From the NCBI RefSeq assembly GCF_036320655.1, contig NZ_CP143258.1:558001-622000 (forward strand): a DNA stretch of 64,000 nt, read 5' to 3'. The position numbers were made by a program, and so were the translations under genes. The stretch is from Porphyromonas pogonae (lineage in GTDB: Bacteria; Bacteroidota; Bacteroidia; Bacteroidales; Porphyromonadaceae). Below the pieces are notes generated by a model. That model saw only the letters and a list, made by a program, of their open reading frames with translations, was not told the DNA's origin and made no database searches. Positions 123 through 59,013 of the stretch are shown here, piece by piece. Position 1 is the stretch's first letter; each line of letters begins with the position of its first letter.

Positions 123-143
123 GTAAAAACACACTCGATATTA

Positions 144-330
144 GAGACTGTTGCAAAAGTCAACAGTCTCCTGGATTTTGGAGGCAAAGCCGACAAAAGA
201 CACTTTGACCGGGCAGAGAAGGTAAAGTGCAAGGCGCTAAGAGTGATTGCACAGGGAGTTTACTTCCGGTAAATGACCAAGCGCGAATCTCGCAAGCAAC
301 GAAGCAATTTGCCTGCTATGCAACGGTCTC
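144..330 (+). mobile_element. 187-bp MITE, copy 1
   Basis: The element runs from GAGACTGTTGCAAAAG to CTATGCAACGGTCTC. Its ends are imperfect inverted repeats (GAGAC[T/C]GTTGCA). The left end is also a hairpin: GAGACTGTTG and CAACAGTCTC around a 7-nt loop. It is flanked on both sides by TATTA, a 5-bp target duplication. It encodes no transposase. Three more copies of identical length lie at 6178, 17843 and 45717. Confidence 0.9.
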
Positions 331-422
331 TATTAGAGTAGCCTCGTGGTACTATGTAGCCCTGTTCATAGTAAAGCTACAAGTGTGTCGAGCCTGATCT
401 TGAAAAAAAATTGCTTCACCTC

Positions 423-454
423 TTGACAAAGGGGGGTACGATGTTGTACCTTTA
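423..454 (+). promoter_or_regulatory. Promoter of element A (TTGACA / TACCTTTA)
   Basis: TTGACA at 423-428 is followed after 18 bp by TACCTTTA at 447-454. The whole stretch, TTGACAAAGGGG..GTAC.ATGTTGTA.CTTT, is nearly identical at 23614-23644 and, inverted, at 59013-58982. Confidence 0.65.
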
Positions 455-510
455 TGGCTGTAGTGTTTATTTTATACCCTGATTATGTACTTATTTATAA
501 CGTGGTGCAA

Positions 511-627
511 ATGAAAGCTAATACAACTAATGACTTGATACTCTATTTCGGTGAATATTTATACCCCCGGAAGTCTTGTGTGGATGTATACACCCCAAAG
601 GTTACATTTTGTCAATACCGACGATAA
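511..627 (+). CDS. Possible 38-aa small protein in element A
   Basis: A short ORF starts MKANTTNDL and ends TFCQYRR, about 57 nt after the element A promoter. An in-frame ATG also exists at 454. Element C has a 41-aa ORF at the equivalent place that also starts MKA. However, the DNA shared by A and C is read in different frames, which argues for conservation as DNA or RNA rather than as protein. No known family is recognised. Confidence 0.25.
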   Translation: MKANTTNDLILYFGEYLYPRKSCVDVYTPKVTFCQYRR

Positions 628-687
628 AAAAGAAAATATCATTTTGTCATTCAGGGAGTAGTTGCATACCTATTACTTTACCATACC

Positions 688-727
688 ACCGCATGCAGAG
701 GTCATGACTCTGTATGCGGTTTTTTTG
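688..727 (+). terminator. Rho-independent terminator of element A
   Basis: ACCGCATGCAGAG (688-700) pairs with CTCTGTATGCGGT (708-720) with one mismatch, followed by a T-run at 720-726. Confidence 0.8.
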
Positions 728-756
728 TTTTGTAGCTCTAAATCTGTTTTTATTAC

Positions 757-880
757 AGCTAAAACACAATCGTGTTTTAACTAAAATGACTCCATGTTAC
801 AACTAAAACGTTGTGGTATCTTAACTAAAATGTTTTTGTGTTATAACTAAAATACCCTTTAGTTACAATTAAAACGCAGA
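757..880 (+). repeat. Six-copy 22-bp array, core AACTAAAA
   Basis: AACTAAAA or a one-base variant starts at 757, 779, 801, 823, 845 and 867, exactly 22 bp apart. About 14 bp around the core is conserved (TGTTA.AACTAAAA) and the remaining 8 bp varies. The 500 bp that follow, up to 1390, show nothing recognisable. Confidence 0.9.
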
Positions 881-18029: not shown

Positions 18030-18219
18030 ATCTTAGATTTGTAAAGGAAAAAAAGAATAACAATAATGAGACTTACACAGGTGCAATTTAAGGAAACTAT
18101 TTTGGGTTTGATGACTTCTTTGCAAGGAGGAGGGAGGGGCTAAAGCGGGCGTGAGTTTGTAGCCCTGAGTGTGAGCAATGGGCCCATGCCGGCGATGAGC
18201 AATGGTGGCATTTTGCAAT

Positions 18220-18308
18220 GTCGACATATTTTGCCGAAAACTGTCGACATATTCGCTTGAAACTGTCGACATATTTGCTTGAAACTGTCGACATATTCTT
18301 TGGGAATA
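18220..18308. repeat. Four-copy 22-bp array, core GTCGACATATT (locus D)
   Basis: GTCGACATATT starts at 18220, 18243, 18265 and 18287, i.e. spacings of 23, 22 and 22 bp. The rest of the unit is GCTTGAAACT or a close variant. It lies just downstream of the zinc metallopeptidase gene. Unlike the other three arrays it has no TTGACAAAGGGG promoter nearby. Confidence 0.85.
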
Positions 18309-23356: not shown

Positions 23357-23613
23357 CTAACAAGAGAGTCTACCGGCAAAAAGAACTAAAGAAATAGCAT
23401 ATCAATGGATCAGAGCGTTTATGCTCAATAAAAGGAGTATTATCTGTAATAGGTTGGTTTATGGATTTGTTTCAAAGAATGTGTCTCACGATGCACTGCT
23501 AATTAAAAGGTGCACTACTTCTCCCCGCTAACTCGTATAACTATCATTTTGTCAATTTCGGGCACAAAGCATTGGACCATGTGTTCCAGCTTTGTTTCTC
23601 TATGTTAGAGCTC

Positions 23614-23644
23614 TTGACAAAGGGGTGTACATGTTGTATCTTTG
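23614..23644 (+). promoter_or_regulatory. Promoter of element B (TTGACA / TATCTTTG)
   Basis: TTGACA at 23614-23619 is followed after 17 bp by TATCTTTG at 23637-23644, a full match to the Bacteroidota -7 box. The sequence between is nearly the same as in elements A and C. Confidence 0.75.
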
Positions 23645-23694
23645 TGATTGCCCCATTTACATCCCACGAATTACATTATTACAAAAAAAGAGTT

Positions 23695-23826
23695 ATGACG
23701 ATAAATACTTTACATCCTTGTCCAGACAAGAGCTTATCCTTAGAGGGATATACAGGGTGTATGCATCTGACTCGATTGCCGTTCCTCACCTCCTATGGGG
23801 CAAGTCTTTGCCTCCTCAGTGAATGA
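23695..23826 (+). CDS. Possible 43-aa small protein in element B
   Basis: A short ORF, 50 nt after the element B promoter, starts MTINTLHPCPDKSLSLEGYTG and ends before the hairpin at 23836. The frame is open upstream to 23572, but that part would include the promoter. The segment SLEGYTG..HL loosely resembles SVETYSGLHF of the ORF in element C. This is weak evidence and no family is recognised. Confidence 0.3.
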   Translation: MTINTLHPCPDKSLSLEGYTGCMHLTRLPFLTSYGASLCLLSE

Positions 23827-23835
23827 TACAAGCTG

Positions 23836-23873
23836 AGAAGTATCATACCGGGCATAACCGCTCTGATACTTCT
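23836..23873 (+). terminator. Hairpin of element B
   Basis: AGAAGTATCA (23836-23845) pairs perfectly with TGATACTTCT (23864-23873). There is no T-run, so termination is uncertain. It occupies the same place as the terminators of elements A and C. Confidence 0.45.
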
Positions 23874-23921
23874 GTACATTACTTACTGAAACATCAACAA
23901 CCCCGCATCTGCCCCCTCTGT

Positions 23922-24053
23922 GACGTATCATAATAAGTTGGCTGATTCATCGTATAGAGTCAGCTGACTTATCGTATACGGACAATCGACTTATCGTATC
24001 AAGTCGGTTGACTTATCATAATAGGTCATTAGACTTATCGTATACCCATGGTG
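23922..24053 (+). repeat. Six-copy 22-bp array, core GACTTATCGTATA
   Basis: Units start at 23922, 23944, 23966, 23988, 24010 and 24032, exactly 22 bp apart. The consensus is GACTTATCGTATA plus 9 variable bases; the first two units are the most diverged. Confidence 0.9.
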
Positions 24054-24145
24054 ATCCTATTATGGTGAAATTTTGATACGTAATACAAGCCAACCAGCGT
24101 GCAGTCAGGGCGCATGGTGATCCTATTATGGTGAAATTTTGATCT
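24047..24145. repeat. 31-bp direct repeat, two copies
   Basis: The 31-bp sequence starting CATGGTGATCCTATTATGG and ending TTTTGAT occurs at 24047-24077 and 24115-24145, 68 bp apart. The first copy overlaps the end of the element B array. The following stretch to 24600 is AT-rich with no gene; it contains the palindrome TTGACATTATGTCAA at about 24448. Confidence 0.85.
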
Positions 24146-24608
24146 CAAATTCTATCCTCACAAAATTGGTGTGCAAGGTAAAGAAATAGAATAATACCGC
24201 GGCATATTTTACCATTATTCATTTTGGAGGGAAAAGTATAGCCGCAGATTTATTTAGCACGTATTTCAGGTCGATTCTGATACTCAAAATAGAGGATTCT
24301 TATTTAGACTTTGTATAAATAAGCGTATAATTGTAACTAAGACTCGATAAATTCTGAGCCTTATCAAAAATTAAGAAATTTATTTAATATACTTGTGTAT
24401 ATACCGTTGCGTATTTCAGGGCTATTTAAGTAAAAGCGGTTTATTTTGACATTATGTCAAGATGATAGGGCATTTTAGAGATGAATACCAATGATAGCAT
24501 CTGTAACGGTATAGTTCCAAATCTCAAATGCCGGTGGAAAATATAATTGTCGATGTATGTTTTCACTATTCATTTTTATTGCAGCCATGCAAAAATTCTA
24601 TAAAAATA

Positions 24609-31102: not shown

Positions 31103-31117
31103 TTTCCATATAATAAC

Positions 31118-31193
31118 TCGGGGGTGCCGATGCATAGACATTGGCTGAGATCATACCCTATAACCTGATCCGGTTAGTACCGGCGTAGGTAGT
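31118..31193 (+). ncRNA. TPP riboswitch (THI element)
   Basis: The conserved blocks are in order: GGGGTGCC, CTGAGA..ATACCC, ACCTGATCCGGTTAGTACCGGCGTAGG. This is the thiamine-pyrophosphate sensor that lowers expression when TPP is high. It lies in the leader of thiS, about 85 nt before its start codon. An AAAGGAGG sequence at 31261-31268 before thiS could be the sequestered ribosome-binding site. Confidence 0.93.
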
Positions 31194-31278
31194 AGTGATA
31201 TTCTTTACCATACTGCAACCGCAGGAGCCTCCCGAACACGAGTCAAATAGAAACTTAAACAAAGGAGGTAAGATTTTC

Positions 31279-55920: not shown

Positions 55921-56118
55921 TTATGGACCTACAGCACTCGTACACCAAGCACCTCCACTACAAAGCTCTTTTGCTCCAGCTCTTTTTTCTGCGCATACGT
56001 AGCTTTGGCAACCATCTTCAAGCAGATATCCTCCCTTAAGAGTTAGGAGCTGCTCGCTTGAGATCTTCCCTTCACCAAATAAATCAGTGAGTTTGATTTT
56101 TAGTTGTTCATTGTTATT
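55921..56118 (-). CDS. Cys-rich double-glycine precursor peptide (start codon missing)
   Basis: A 65-residue frame outside the IS. The leader has hydrophobics at -12, -7 and -4 (Ile, Leu, Leu) before Lys-Gly-Gly (SSEQLLTLKGG), the standard double-glycine pattern cut by C39 exporters. The core of 35 residues has four Cys spaced CX4CX10CX5C (GCQSYVCAEKR... ELCSGGAWCTSAVGP). No ATG, GTG or TTG is in frame back to a stop inside the adjoining IS at 56121, so the native start seems lost or displaced. It lies 121 bp upstream of the radical SAM gene. Confidence 0.75.
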   Translation of the reverse strand, partial: NNNEQLKIKLTDLFGEGKISSEQLLTLKGGYLLEDGCQSYVCAEKRAGAKELCSGGAWCTSAVGP

Positions 56119-56120
56119 TA

Positions 56121-57550
56121 GTCGCCCCTTAAAATCGTGTTTATTTTCTGATATACAGCAAATTGCACTCTTCTATTCTTTGATAAATCTGCAAGTTTTT
56201 GTATCTTTGGATATAGAAACTTGCAGATTTTTTTATGATACGCCCTACTCAAACAGTTCAATCTCTGTTCTCTTCGCTGGACGATTTGCTCAACCAGCAA
56301 CATCCTCTGTATAAACTTTCCCATAAAATCGATTGGAAAAGGTTCGAAGAGGCTTTTTCTTCCTTGTATTGCCCTGACAATGGTCGTCCAGGTAAGCCTA
56401 TTCGTTTAATGTGTGGTCTTTTAATTCTCAAGCATTTGCGCAATATTTCAGATGAATCTGTTGTAGAACAATGGAGTGAGAACGCTTATTTTCAATATTT
56501 TTGTGGCATGCAGGAGTTTACACCTTCCTTTCCCTGCAATGCCTCGGAACTGGTTCACTTCCGCAAACGTATCGGCGAAAGAGGGATAGAGCTTATTCTT
56601 GCAGAAAGTATTCGTGTGAATGATGACAAAAATGATAAGGATCACCACGATACCGCTTTTATAGACTCCACCGTGCAGGAAAAGAATGTGACCTATCCTA
56701 CAGATGCCAAGTTGCATAAGAAGATAGTAGGCAAGGTTCTCAAAATCGCAAGGGCTCTCAATCTACCCATTCGTCAAAGCTATACTTTCGTATTGAAAAG
56801 AATTTATCGGGATCAACGTTTTCGCAACCATCCCAAGAACCGTAAGAAAGCTCTTAAAGCGGATAAACGGTTACGAACAATAGCGGGACGTTTGGTTCGG
56901 GAACTTAAACGAAACCTAGGTAGTAACAGGGAGTACGACAAACTCATTTCCCTCTTTGAAAGGATTCTTTCGCAACGGCGTAATTCCACTCAAAAGATTT
57001 ATTCTCTTCATGAACCGGATGTTCAATGCATCAGTAAAGGTAAGGAGCACAAAAAATATGAGTTTGGAAACAAAGTCTCGATTATACGCTCCATGACGGG
57101 AGTGATTTTGGGAGCCTCTTCTTTCCGTAATGAGTACGACGGACATACCATAGAGCAAAGCCTCGATCAGGTGAAGAGACTCACGGGAGAAAGGATTAAG
57201 AAACTGGCCGGAGATAGAGGTTACCGTGGAAAAAAAGAAATAAACGGTACGCAGATATTGATTCCTGACACTCCAAAAGCTAAAGACAGTTATTATCAAC
57301 GTAAAAAGAAGCATCGACTTTTCTGCAAGCGTGCAGGAATAGAACCAACTATCGGACATTTAAAATCAGATTATCGCTTGGGACGTAACTTTTACAAAGG
57401 GCTCTTCGGGGATGCTATCAATGTAATGTTAGCTGCAGCGGCATATAACTTCAAAAGAGCCATGAAGCTTCTTTTGTACCTAATAAACAAAATCAGCGAA
57501 ACACTCCCAATGGAGAGGATTGCGCTGAAATGTGCTTTTTAAGGGACGAC
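56121..57550 (+). mobile_element. IS5-like insertion sequence, copy 2 (1430 bp)
   Basis: Same length, ends and orientation as copy 1. Both flanks read TATTTA, consistent with a target duplication of up to 6 bp. The left end touches the 5' side of the precursor peptide gene. On the far side, the minus strand has an ATGATGGGTAATC start-like sequence, but that frame meets a stop before the peptide frame. Confidence 0.9.
56235..57542 (+). CDS. IS5-like DDE transposase, copy 2
   Basis: A 435-aa intact transposase, about 99% identical to copy 1 by eye. The same DDE landmarks are present (AFIDSTVQEKN, LAGDRGYRGKKE, GIEPTIGHLKSDYR). Confidence 0.92.
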   Translation: MIRPTQTVQSLFSSLDDLLNQQHPLYKLSHKIDWKRFEEAFSSLYCPDNGRPGKPIRLMCGLLILKHLRNISDESVVEQWSENAYFQYFCGMQEFTPSFPCNASELVHFRKRIGERGIELILAESIRVNDDKNDKDHHDTAFIDSTVQEKNVTYPTDAKLHKKIVGKVLKIARALNLPIRQSYTFVLKRIYRDQRFRNHPKNRKKALKADKRLRTIAGRLVRELKRNLGSNREYDKLISLFERILSQRRNSTQKIYSLHEPDVQCISKGKEHKKYEFGNKVSIIRSMTGVILGASSFRNEYDGHTIEQSLDQVKRLTGERIKKLAGDRGYRGKKEINGTQILIPDTPKAKDSYYQRKKKHRLFCKRAGIEPTIGHLKSDYRLGRNFYKGLFGDAINVMLAAAAYNFKRAMKLLLYLINKISETLPMERIALKCAF

Positions 57551-58560
57551 TATTTATTGTAATAGATTACCCATCATTTAAACTTTCAAGACTGATGGGA
57601 ACACCTTTTATGTCTTTGCTTATCCTATACCTATTATTTGGGGGCCTATATTTTTTTATAATTATTGTAAAATCAAACAAACCTCCCTGTAGTTTTTCTC
57701 ATGGTCCTCAAAACTGCATACCTCTGATGTTCAAAATCAAGGCATTTTTAAATAGAATGATGTTATTATATTATAGCGTGTTGAGCCCTCTTTATTAAAC
57801 CATAATATTACATGGAAAATTCACTGTTGGATGCATAATTCCAGTATAAGTTACTACGTTATTATATCGTAAGCTATTTTAATTTTAACGGAATTTCTTA
57901 TTTAAAACTTGTATATCAGGATAATGTAAAGTTTTAGACAAACTTATTTAAGCCTATATGTAATTAGAGTCCTTTATTCACAATATGAGATTGATTGCTA
58001 ATTTAGTGATTATTAATTAATAACCAAAATAATTCATTATTTTCTTCTTTAGGCACATTCCAGTGTTAAGTACAACGGTATTATAAATTTAAGATAAAAT
58101 ATTTGAACGAGGATTCGGAATTCATTTTTTTGAGATCTATAGTTTAGGAAGCGTTCTATAAGTCTCGTTTGTTGAGGTATTATATTCTTGATTAAGGTAT
58201 TTCAATGATCTCTTTCCCTGAGGTTAGGCTATTGATATTTTCAATCTTTCATTTTTGCATTTTTACTGTTAATTTAGATCCATTTCGGAGCCTCTCAATC
58301 ACACTCCTCTGCTATGGATTTACGGGCAAACTTATACTTTGAGAAATATTCCAGTAAACAGCTCCTAAAAAATTGGTTTATTAACTGAATGGCAAAATAA
58401 AAACAGCTCGTCGACAATTACACTAAGCAAAAACTTGCATTTTGTTTTATTTATCCATCGTATATCTTATATTTATAGAATATCAAATAGTAGCATAAAA
58501 CGCATATTTTGAAACATAAAATATGGTAATATGCACCAAGCCGTATCTTTATGATAACAC
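57551..58560. other. AT-rich region without a visible gene
   Basis: About 1 kb with no convincing ORF on either strand. It lies upstream of the interrupted peptide operon and would be expected to hold its original promoter. I looked for a second Gly-Gly precursor on both strands and saw none. Confidence 0.5.
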
Positions 58561-58592
58561 TGTGTTTGGCTAAAATCCTCTTGGTATTTTTG

Positions 58593-58714
58593 TAACTAAG
58601 CCGCATTATTTTCTTAGTTACGTTACATTATTTTTCTAACTAAGAAACCGGAGTGACGTAGTTAGAAAAATATCATCATGTAGTTAGAAAAATAATAAAA
58701 CTTAGTTAAGAAAA
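58593..58714 (-). repeat. Six-copy 22-bp array, core TAGTTA/TAACTA
   Basis: TAACTA or its complement TAGTTA starts at 58593, 58615, 58637, 58659, 58681 and 58703, exactly 22 bp apart. Unlike arrays A and B, the core occurs in both orientations. AAAAATA often follows it. This is the array of element C. Confidence 0.9.
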
Positions 58715-58734
58715 ACACACATTACAGCACTGTA

Positions 58735-58779
58735 ACAAAAAAGCCGTAAAGAGGGTGTTAGATCCTCTATACGGCTTTT
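58735..58779 (-). terminator. Terminator of element C
   Basis: AAAAGCCGTAAAGAGG pairs with CCTCTATACGGCTTTT with one mismatch; on the minus strand the stem is followed by a T-run (TTTTTTGTT). Confidence 0.8.
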
Positions 58780-58824: not shown

Positions 58825-58950
58825 TCATCTCTTTCGATTTATTTTGACAAAATGTAAGCCAGAGTAAGTCTCAACGCTCATAGGGTGTGCTATAGAGCAA
58901 ACCTCGGCAGAGGTGGCAGTATTGGGTATATAATTTGTTCGGGCTTTCAT
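58825..58950 (-). CDS. Possible 41-aa small protein in element C
   Basis: A short ORF starts MKARTNYIPNTATSAEVC and ends VKINRKR, lying between the element C promoter and terminator. It occupies the same place as the short ORFs of elements A and B. Similarity is limited to MKA at the start (A) and a SVETYSG..HF segment (B). No family is recognised. Confidence 0.3.
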   Translation of the reverse strand: MKARTNYIPNTATSAEVCSIAHPMSVETYSGLHFVKINRKR

Positions 58951-58981: not shown

Positions 58982-59013
58982 CAAAGATACAACATCAGTA
59001 CCCCCTTTGTCAA
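58982..59013 (-). promoter_or_regulatory. Promoter of element C (TTGACA / TATCTTTG)
   Basis: On the minus strand TTGACA (59013-59008) is followed after 18 bp by TATCTTTG (58989-58982). The sequence CTCTTGACAAAGGGGGTAC.GATGTTGTA is shared with element A. Confidence 0.75.

What the first reader, a model, noticed from the sequence alone, without database searches (positions are those of the whole stretch)
418..880. New intergenic element family: conserved promoter, short transcript, hairpin, then six repeats in exact 22-bp register
Elements A (418-880), B (23614-24053) and C (59013-58593, minus strand) share TTGACAAAGGGG..GTAC.ATGTTGTA.CTTT as promoter, a transcribed stretch of ~200 bp, a hairpin, and an array that starts about 275-300 bp after the promoter. 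The repeat cores start at 757+22n, 23922+22n and 58593+22n for n=0-5 without a single slip. The cores differ completely (AACTAAAA, GACTTATCGTATA, TAGTTA), so spacing and copy number are kept while sequence is not. Two helical turns per unit would place a bound protein on one face, as with iterons. Tandem-repeat MITEs with ~23-nt units (named BrickBuilt) have been reported in P. gingivalis; whether these are related is open.
Basis: seen in the sequence. Interest (0 to 1): 0.82.

Follow-up and report, generated by a model that had tools for sequence, protein, structure and literature searches.

The report
HU-paralog genes paired with 22-bp arrays

Summary
In detail: three intergenic elements share a promoter, a short leader and a six-unit array at exactly 22 bp. 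It is larger than reported: 30 strict copies plus at least 20 more arrays of several core types in this genome. In unbiased scans of other Porphyromonadaceae, 22-bp arrays (some 21 or 23) dominate short tandem repeats, with different cores; the known BrickBuilt 23-mer is one of them.

Evidence leads away from an sRNA or plain MITE reading. Array types have a copy beside different paralogs of the HU-HIG family (PF18291, HU-fold). Here types A, C, D, E and F each flank a different HU-HIG gene. Across 25 genomes, 60 of 104 HU-HIG genes have a 21-23 bp array within 450 bp upstream, against 37 of 302 control genes (p about 5e-19; 27 of 49 after clustering). A genome not used to form the idea gave 7 of 11. 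Dispersed arrays often match the array at a HU-HIG gene of the same genome. Cores are palindromic, without compensatory changes.

Best explanation: each array is a multi-site operator for its cognate HU-HIG dimer. Binding is inferred, not shown; the role is open; type B has no proven partner.

The parts
423..453 (+). element A promoter (TTGACAAA -33 / TACCTTT -7)
511..627 (+). element A short ORF, 38 aa (not the first ATG; the excess of leader ORFs was tested for the class)
689..727 (+). element A terminator-like hairpin CCGCATGCAGAG..CTCTGTATGCGG + T-run
   Evidence: read directly
749..880 (.). element A array, type A (GTGTTTTARYTAAAACAC-like palindromes), 6 units of 22 bp; same type as the array 3' of HU-HIG gene G000:C1:527317-527775
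23614..23643 (+). element B promoter
23695..23826 (+). element B short ORF, 43 aa
23837..23872 (+). element B inverted repeat GAAGTATCA..TGATACTTC, no T-run
   Evidence: read directly
23917..24048 (.). element B array, type B (GACYTATCNTATACGG), 6 units of 22 bp; cognate HU-HIG not identified
58983..59013 (-). element C promoter
58825..58950 (-). element C short ORF, 41 aa (not the first ATG)
58737..58777 (-). element C terminator-like hairpin AAGCCGTATAGAGG..CCTCTTTACGGCTT + T-run
58584..58715 (.). element C array, type C (TTTTTCTAACTAAGAAAAA-like), 3 units + 3 inverted units of 22 bp; same type as the array 3' of HU-HIG gene G000:C1:2365179-2365649
18217..18298 (.). fourth array in the window, type D (ACTGTCGACATATT), same type as the array upstream of HU-HIG gene G000:C1:1480916-1481359

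Best explanation
Each 22-bp array is a tandem row of binding sites for one HU-HIG paralog (PF18291: HU/IHF-fold DNA-binding domain with a variable, often Gly/Pro-rich tail). A HU-HIG homodimer would sit on each palindrome; a 22-bp step is about two helical turns, so successive dimers face the same side and can bind cooperatively. The gene of a paralog usually carries its own array just 5' of the coding region (autoregulation), or 3' of it for types A and C here. Copies of the same array are dispersed in intergenic DNA, in promoter-mini-ORF-terminator-array cassettes (A, B, C) or in MITEs. Shown: the arrays, their period, palindromy, the association with HU-HIG genes, and array matching within a genome. 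Inferred: binding, one-to-one specificity, autoregulation. Most likely role (my guess, about 35%): an addressed nucleoid protein that coats and silences or insulates array-bearing loci, with supply tuned by titration onto the dispersed arrays.
For: HU-HIG loci: 60/104 have a 21-23 bp array within 450 bp upstream (44 at lag 22; only 2 at all other lags 14-35); 3 of 103 downstream at 21-22. Controls 37/302, OR 9.8, p 5e-19; 27 of 49 clusters at 60% identity. Independent genome G092 of another family: 7 of 11, p 9e-5 against the control rate. Own genome: 6 HU-HIG genes, five beside five different array types A, C, D, E, F (F is weak). Dispersed arrays match an own-genome HU-HIG array in 27/66. 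Near-ortholog pairs (at least 70% identity) share core words in 25% of pairs, others in 0-3% (Mantel p 0.0005). Palindromy p<0.05 in 78% of HU-HIG arrays and 62% of dispersed arrays. No excess of compensatory changes in type A or C units. HU/IHF homology by profile against PDB.
Against: No binding data. 44 of 104 HU-HIG genes show no upstream array at this threshold. Type B, one of the commonest here, has no array-bearing HU-HIG gene. 39 of 66 dispersed arrays have no match by the 9-mer test, so some partners are unknown or too diverged. Below 70% protein identity there is no correlation between protein and array similarity, and some 80-90% identical proteins have different arrays. Canonical HU shows little sequence specificity.
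Confidence: 0.72

Rival explanations
1. Minisatellites of MITE-like elements with no protein partner; the HU-HIG association only reflects where such elements land or persist.
For: In G004 one array family lies in a ~600-bp repeat with IS5-type ends GAGACCATTGC..GCAACAGTCTC and 1-9 units; BrickBuilt is described as a MITE.
Against: Arrays with one core at different loci can share only the array, not flanks; landing bias does not explain why paralogs in a genome have different cores that match the dispersed arrays, nor the position upstream of the start codon in three families of the order.
Confidence: 0.15
2. Arrays act as RNA: hairpins, terminators or an sRNA 3' end.
For: Strong promoter, and a covarying hairpin with U-run 5' of type C arrays and several type A arrays; some spacers are inverted repeats of each other (L019, L002, L024).
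Against: Symmetric positions vary independently, no compensatory excess; the array lies 3' of the terminator; no Rfam family hits the elements; period locked to 22 bp.
Confidence: 0.05
3. Structural DNA: 6 x 22 = 132 bp is about one gyrase wrap; the arrays are bendable gyrase or curvature sites needing no specific protein.
For: Array length, two-turn period, and the 3+3 inverted symmetry of type C. The wrap length is from general knowledge.
Against: Arrays elsewhere run from about 3 to 17 units; cores are specific and shared with particular HU-HIG genes; cores such as GACCTATATAGGTC or ACCAGTACTGGT have no A-tracts.
Confidence: 0.05

Closest known systems
BrickBuilt minisatellite MITE of Porphyromonas gingivalis (PMC4596501)
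   Same: Intergenic, many copies, tandem repeats of ~2 helical turns (palindromic in G025), promoter activity reported. A BrickBuilt-like 23-mer array (GAGACCATAGTATCCTCTCATAT) lies beside a HU-HIG gene in G025; the paper's Table 1 lists a PF00216 DNA-binding protein gene next to BrickBuilt_14.
   Different: 22 not 23 bp, unrelated core, no IS5-type terminal repeats seen on A, B or C. The paper's main text has no mention of palindromes, histones or binding sites.
HU-HIG family (PF18291)
   Same: The proposed protein partner; several copies per genome in most Porphyromonadaceae sampled and in G059 and G092.
   Different: No DNA target found in the papers I could search. From memory, Burroughs et al. 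2017 proposed a role against mobile elements; that paper is not in the library.
IHF, ParB-parS, MatP-matS, plasmid iterons
   Same: Chromosomal or plasmid proteins with dispersed or tandem specific sites; iterons also step at about 22 bp (general knowledge).
   Different: Here a whole set of paralogs per genome, most with their own array type, turning over between species.

Membership tests
BrickBuilt MITE | 23-nt tandem repeat of the BrickBuilt core | tested here: not met
   A, B, C have 22-bp period and unrelated cores
BrickBuilt MITE | IS5-type terminal inverted repeats GAGACCTTTGCA / TGCAAAGGTCTC at the element ends | tested here: not met
   None seen at the element ends. A separate ~190-bp repeat with ends GAGAC..GTCTC lies beside A and inside other elements
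BrickBuilt MITE | intergenic, dispersed, multi-copy | tested here: met
HU-HIG (protein partner) | matches PF18291 above its curated cut-off | tested here: met
   Six own-genome proteins at 62-100 bits, cut-off 26.2
HU-HIG array system (proposed here) | a HU-HIG gene with an adjacent array of the same type as the window element | tested here: met
   A with L196, C with L198, D with L200; not met for B
HU-HIG array system (proposed here) | specific binding of the protein to the array | not testable with these tools
   needs EMSA, DAP-seq or ChIP-seq
Plasmid iteron origin | Rep gene and replication origin next to the iterons | tested here: inconclusive
   Neighbours of the 30 strict copies are varied and unrelated by inspection of their ORFs; Rep models were not run

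The most novel reading that the evidence does not exclude
A many-specificity chromatin system in bacteria: a set of paralogous HU-fold proteins, each reading its own palindromic array; array copies are spread across the genome (partly on MITEs) and their number is sensed by titration at the protein's own gene; protein and array diverge quickly between species, much as KRAB zinc-finger proteins and transposons do.
Probability: 0.3. Interest if true: 0.93.

Novelty: categorically new. Interest (0 to 1): 0.85.

Why it matters
It proposes a DNA target for an expanded bacterial protein family with no described target in the papers I could search, gives satellite repeats known in P. gingivalis a candidate partner, and offers many natural protein-site pairs for learning how an HU/IHF fold can read sequence. 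If binding is confirmed, one genome would hold several parallel addressing codes, which would matter for nucleoid organisation and for control of mobile elements. The repeat (BrickBuilt) and the protein family (HU-HIG) are each known; the pairing of paralogs with private arrays is what I find no precedent for.

Tried and rejected
sRNA family: no Rfam match in the elements. Strict promoter as the family marker: in other species it is an ordinary strong promoter without arrays. Early fixed-spacing pattern searches imposed 22 bp, so they were replaced by lag scans of stretches not chosen for arrays. Macrodomain distribution: apparent clustering of A and B came from truncated hit lists; dropped. 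Gene-orientation preference: none clear. Hairpin covariation within units: none. Type B partner L199: position-weight scan negative. Leader peptide families: no Pfam match above cut-off for nine leader ORFs tested. A file of the whole genome was not available; only stretches were taken. Structure prediction was not attempted because the stated rule limits it to other sources of loci.

Full report
CHECK OF THE OBSERVATION. Tandem Repeats Finder reports period 22 at each, and a lag scan of the whole window finds only lag-22 arrays: the three plus a fourth at 18217. Thirty exact copies of the promoter lie in this 2.9-Mb genome; 29 of them have lag 22 or 44 as the best lag in the next 900 bases, and L007 has a weak array. 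Sixty relatives have no exact copy, and seven matches in other genomes are ordinary gene promoters without arrays.

ANATOMY. Arrays have about 6-7 units in fixed phase and fall into types (D and E, F). A: GTGTTTTARYTAAAACAC. B: GACYTATCNTATACGG. C: TTTTTCTAACTAAGAAAAA, three units followed by three inverted units. D: ACTGTCGACATATT. E: CAATCTTTGA. F: GTAC-centred. In types B and C the units look position-specific (first, middle and last units differ consistently between copies; by eye). The promoter goes with the arrays: of 20 loci picked by array pattern alone, 15 have a TTGACA..TATNTTTG promoter 290-700 bp 5' of the array, against a background of 0.0225 per kb, while 0 of 7 D/E arrays have one. 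The leader carries a short ORF more often than chance: the first ATG opens at least 28 codons in 70% of 47 leaders, against 19% in Markov controls (maximum 32%) and 15% on the reverse strand. The peptides look unrelated to one another, and nine tested gave no Pfam match above cut-off. Symmetric positions in type A and C units vary without compensatory excess, which fits a dimer site on double-stranded DNA rather than a hairpin.

NOT ONLY THIS GENOME. In stretches not chosen for arrays, lag 22 dominates all lags from 10 to 59: 21 arrays in 200 kb of G004 (next best lag: 2), 7 at 22 and 6 at 23 in G025, 6 in 60 kb of G027, 13 in 464 kb of the own genome including the window; three genomes of other families gave none at 22 in 20-60 kb each. 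Two genomes (G018, G021) lean to 21 or 14 instead. In G004 one family sits in a MITE with IS5-type ends, while other arrays of one core share no flanks. G025 carries the BrickBuilt-like 23-mer; its length is what I recall for P. gingivalis ATCC 33277 (memory).

THE HU-HIG LINK. One array-first locus (L120) turned out to be promoter, intact HU-HIG gene, terminator, type A array. The genome has six HU-HIG genes besides two canonical HU genes. Five have an adjacent array, each of a different type: A (3'), C (3'), D, E and F (5'); the F array is weak (z 4.2) and was read by eye. I then predicted the same elsewhere. Among 104 HU-HIG loci from 25 genomes, 60 have a 21-23 bp array within 450 bp upstream, 2 have another best lag above threshold, and 3 of 103 have a 21-22 bp array downstream. 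Control genes with free upstream DNA in the same genomes: 37 of 302. The result survives clustering of the proteins at 60% identity, 27 of 49. G092, from a family not used before, gave 7 of 11 at the same threshold. Most of the other Bacteroidales and Bacteroidia sampled carry only canonical HU or nothing at the strict threshold. The best 88-bp array window typically spans about -200 to -110 from the start codon.

PAIRING. In G000, G004 and G025, 27 of 66 dispersed arrays share at least two repeated 9-mers with an own-genome HU-HIG array; 18 match a foreign one, mostly at near-orthologs. Examples: GCTATATAGC of the G004 MITE with L229, ACCAGTACTGGT with L221, BrickBuilt with L216. Protein and array similarity correlate only among close relatives; some orthologous groups show drifting but related cores, for instance ACGTATACGT in L225 and GTATACGT in L218. 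Type B has no array-bearing HU-HIG gene; L199 is a candidate only by elimination and shared promoter.

READING. The economical account is one HU-HIG dimer per palindrome, rows of dimers two turns apart, autoregulation at the gene, and dispersed array copies as further sites. What these sites do is not settled; silencing or insulation of array-bearing loci is my first guess. Main limits: no binding data, orthologous loci are not fully independent, detection thresholds miss short or decayed arrays, the null for the lag z-score is approximate, and I could not read the 2017 HU superfamily paper.

Noticed in passing
window 18217-18298: Fourth 22-bp array (type D, ACTGTCGACATATT), same type as the array upstream of HU-HIG gene L200; no promoter of the A-C kind within 900 bp.
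   Followed up: yes
L009, L018, L023, L025 (upstream of promoter): An insertion sequence (transposase MTRRVDGVM.. seen at three of them) sits exactly in the promoter -33 box with about 10-bp duplication CTTGACAAAG, in 4 of 30 elements: the element promoter is a preferred target.
   Followed up: partly
window 56111-57556; also L022 and L198: Another insertion sequence (transposase MIRPTQTVQSL..) lies beyond type C arrays at three loci; in L022 and L198 it starts at a TAGTTA sequence like the array centre.
   Followed up: no
window 139-335: ~190-bp repeat (about 95% identical copies) with ends GAGAC..GTCTC beside element A; also inserted inside elements L003 and L026.
   Followed up: partly
L013 and L015 (window ~23536-24476): Element B and its 93% copy share boundaries with inverted ends CTATCATTTTGTCA / TGTCAAGATGATAG, suggesting one moved as a ~940-bp unit.
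   Followed up: partly
types C and some A, e.g. window 58866-58800 (minus): Conserved TTACATTTTGTCA..ATATCAAATTGTCARAATGTA module between short ORF and terminator; function unknown.
   Followed up: no
window 31110-31209; L008 1869-2064: TPP riboswitch in the window; cobalamin riboswitch near the element of L008.
   Followed up: no
G018, G021 stretches (L181-L184): Other short-period intergenic arrays (14 bp, CTCTAATCTCTAAC; 21 bp, AAACTTCGGAGGAATGAAATG) in two genomes that have few HU-HIG genes.
   Followed up: no
G025 L153:127 and nearby: 41-42-bp tandem repeats, probably the known PgRS/MITE464 repeats of P. gingivalis.
   Followed up: no
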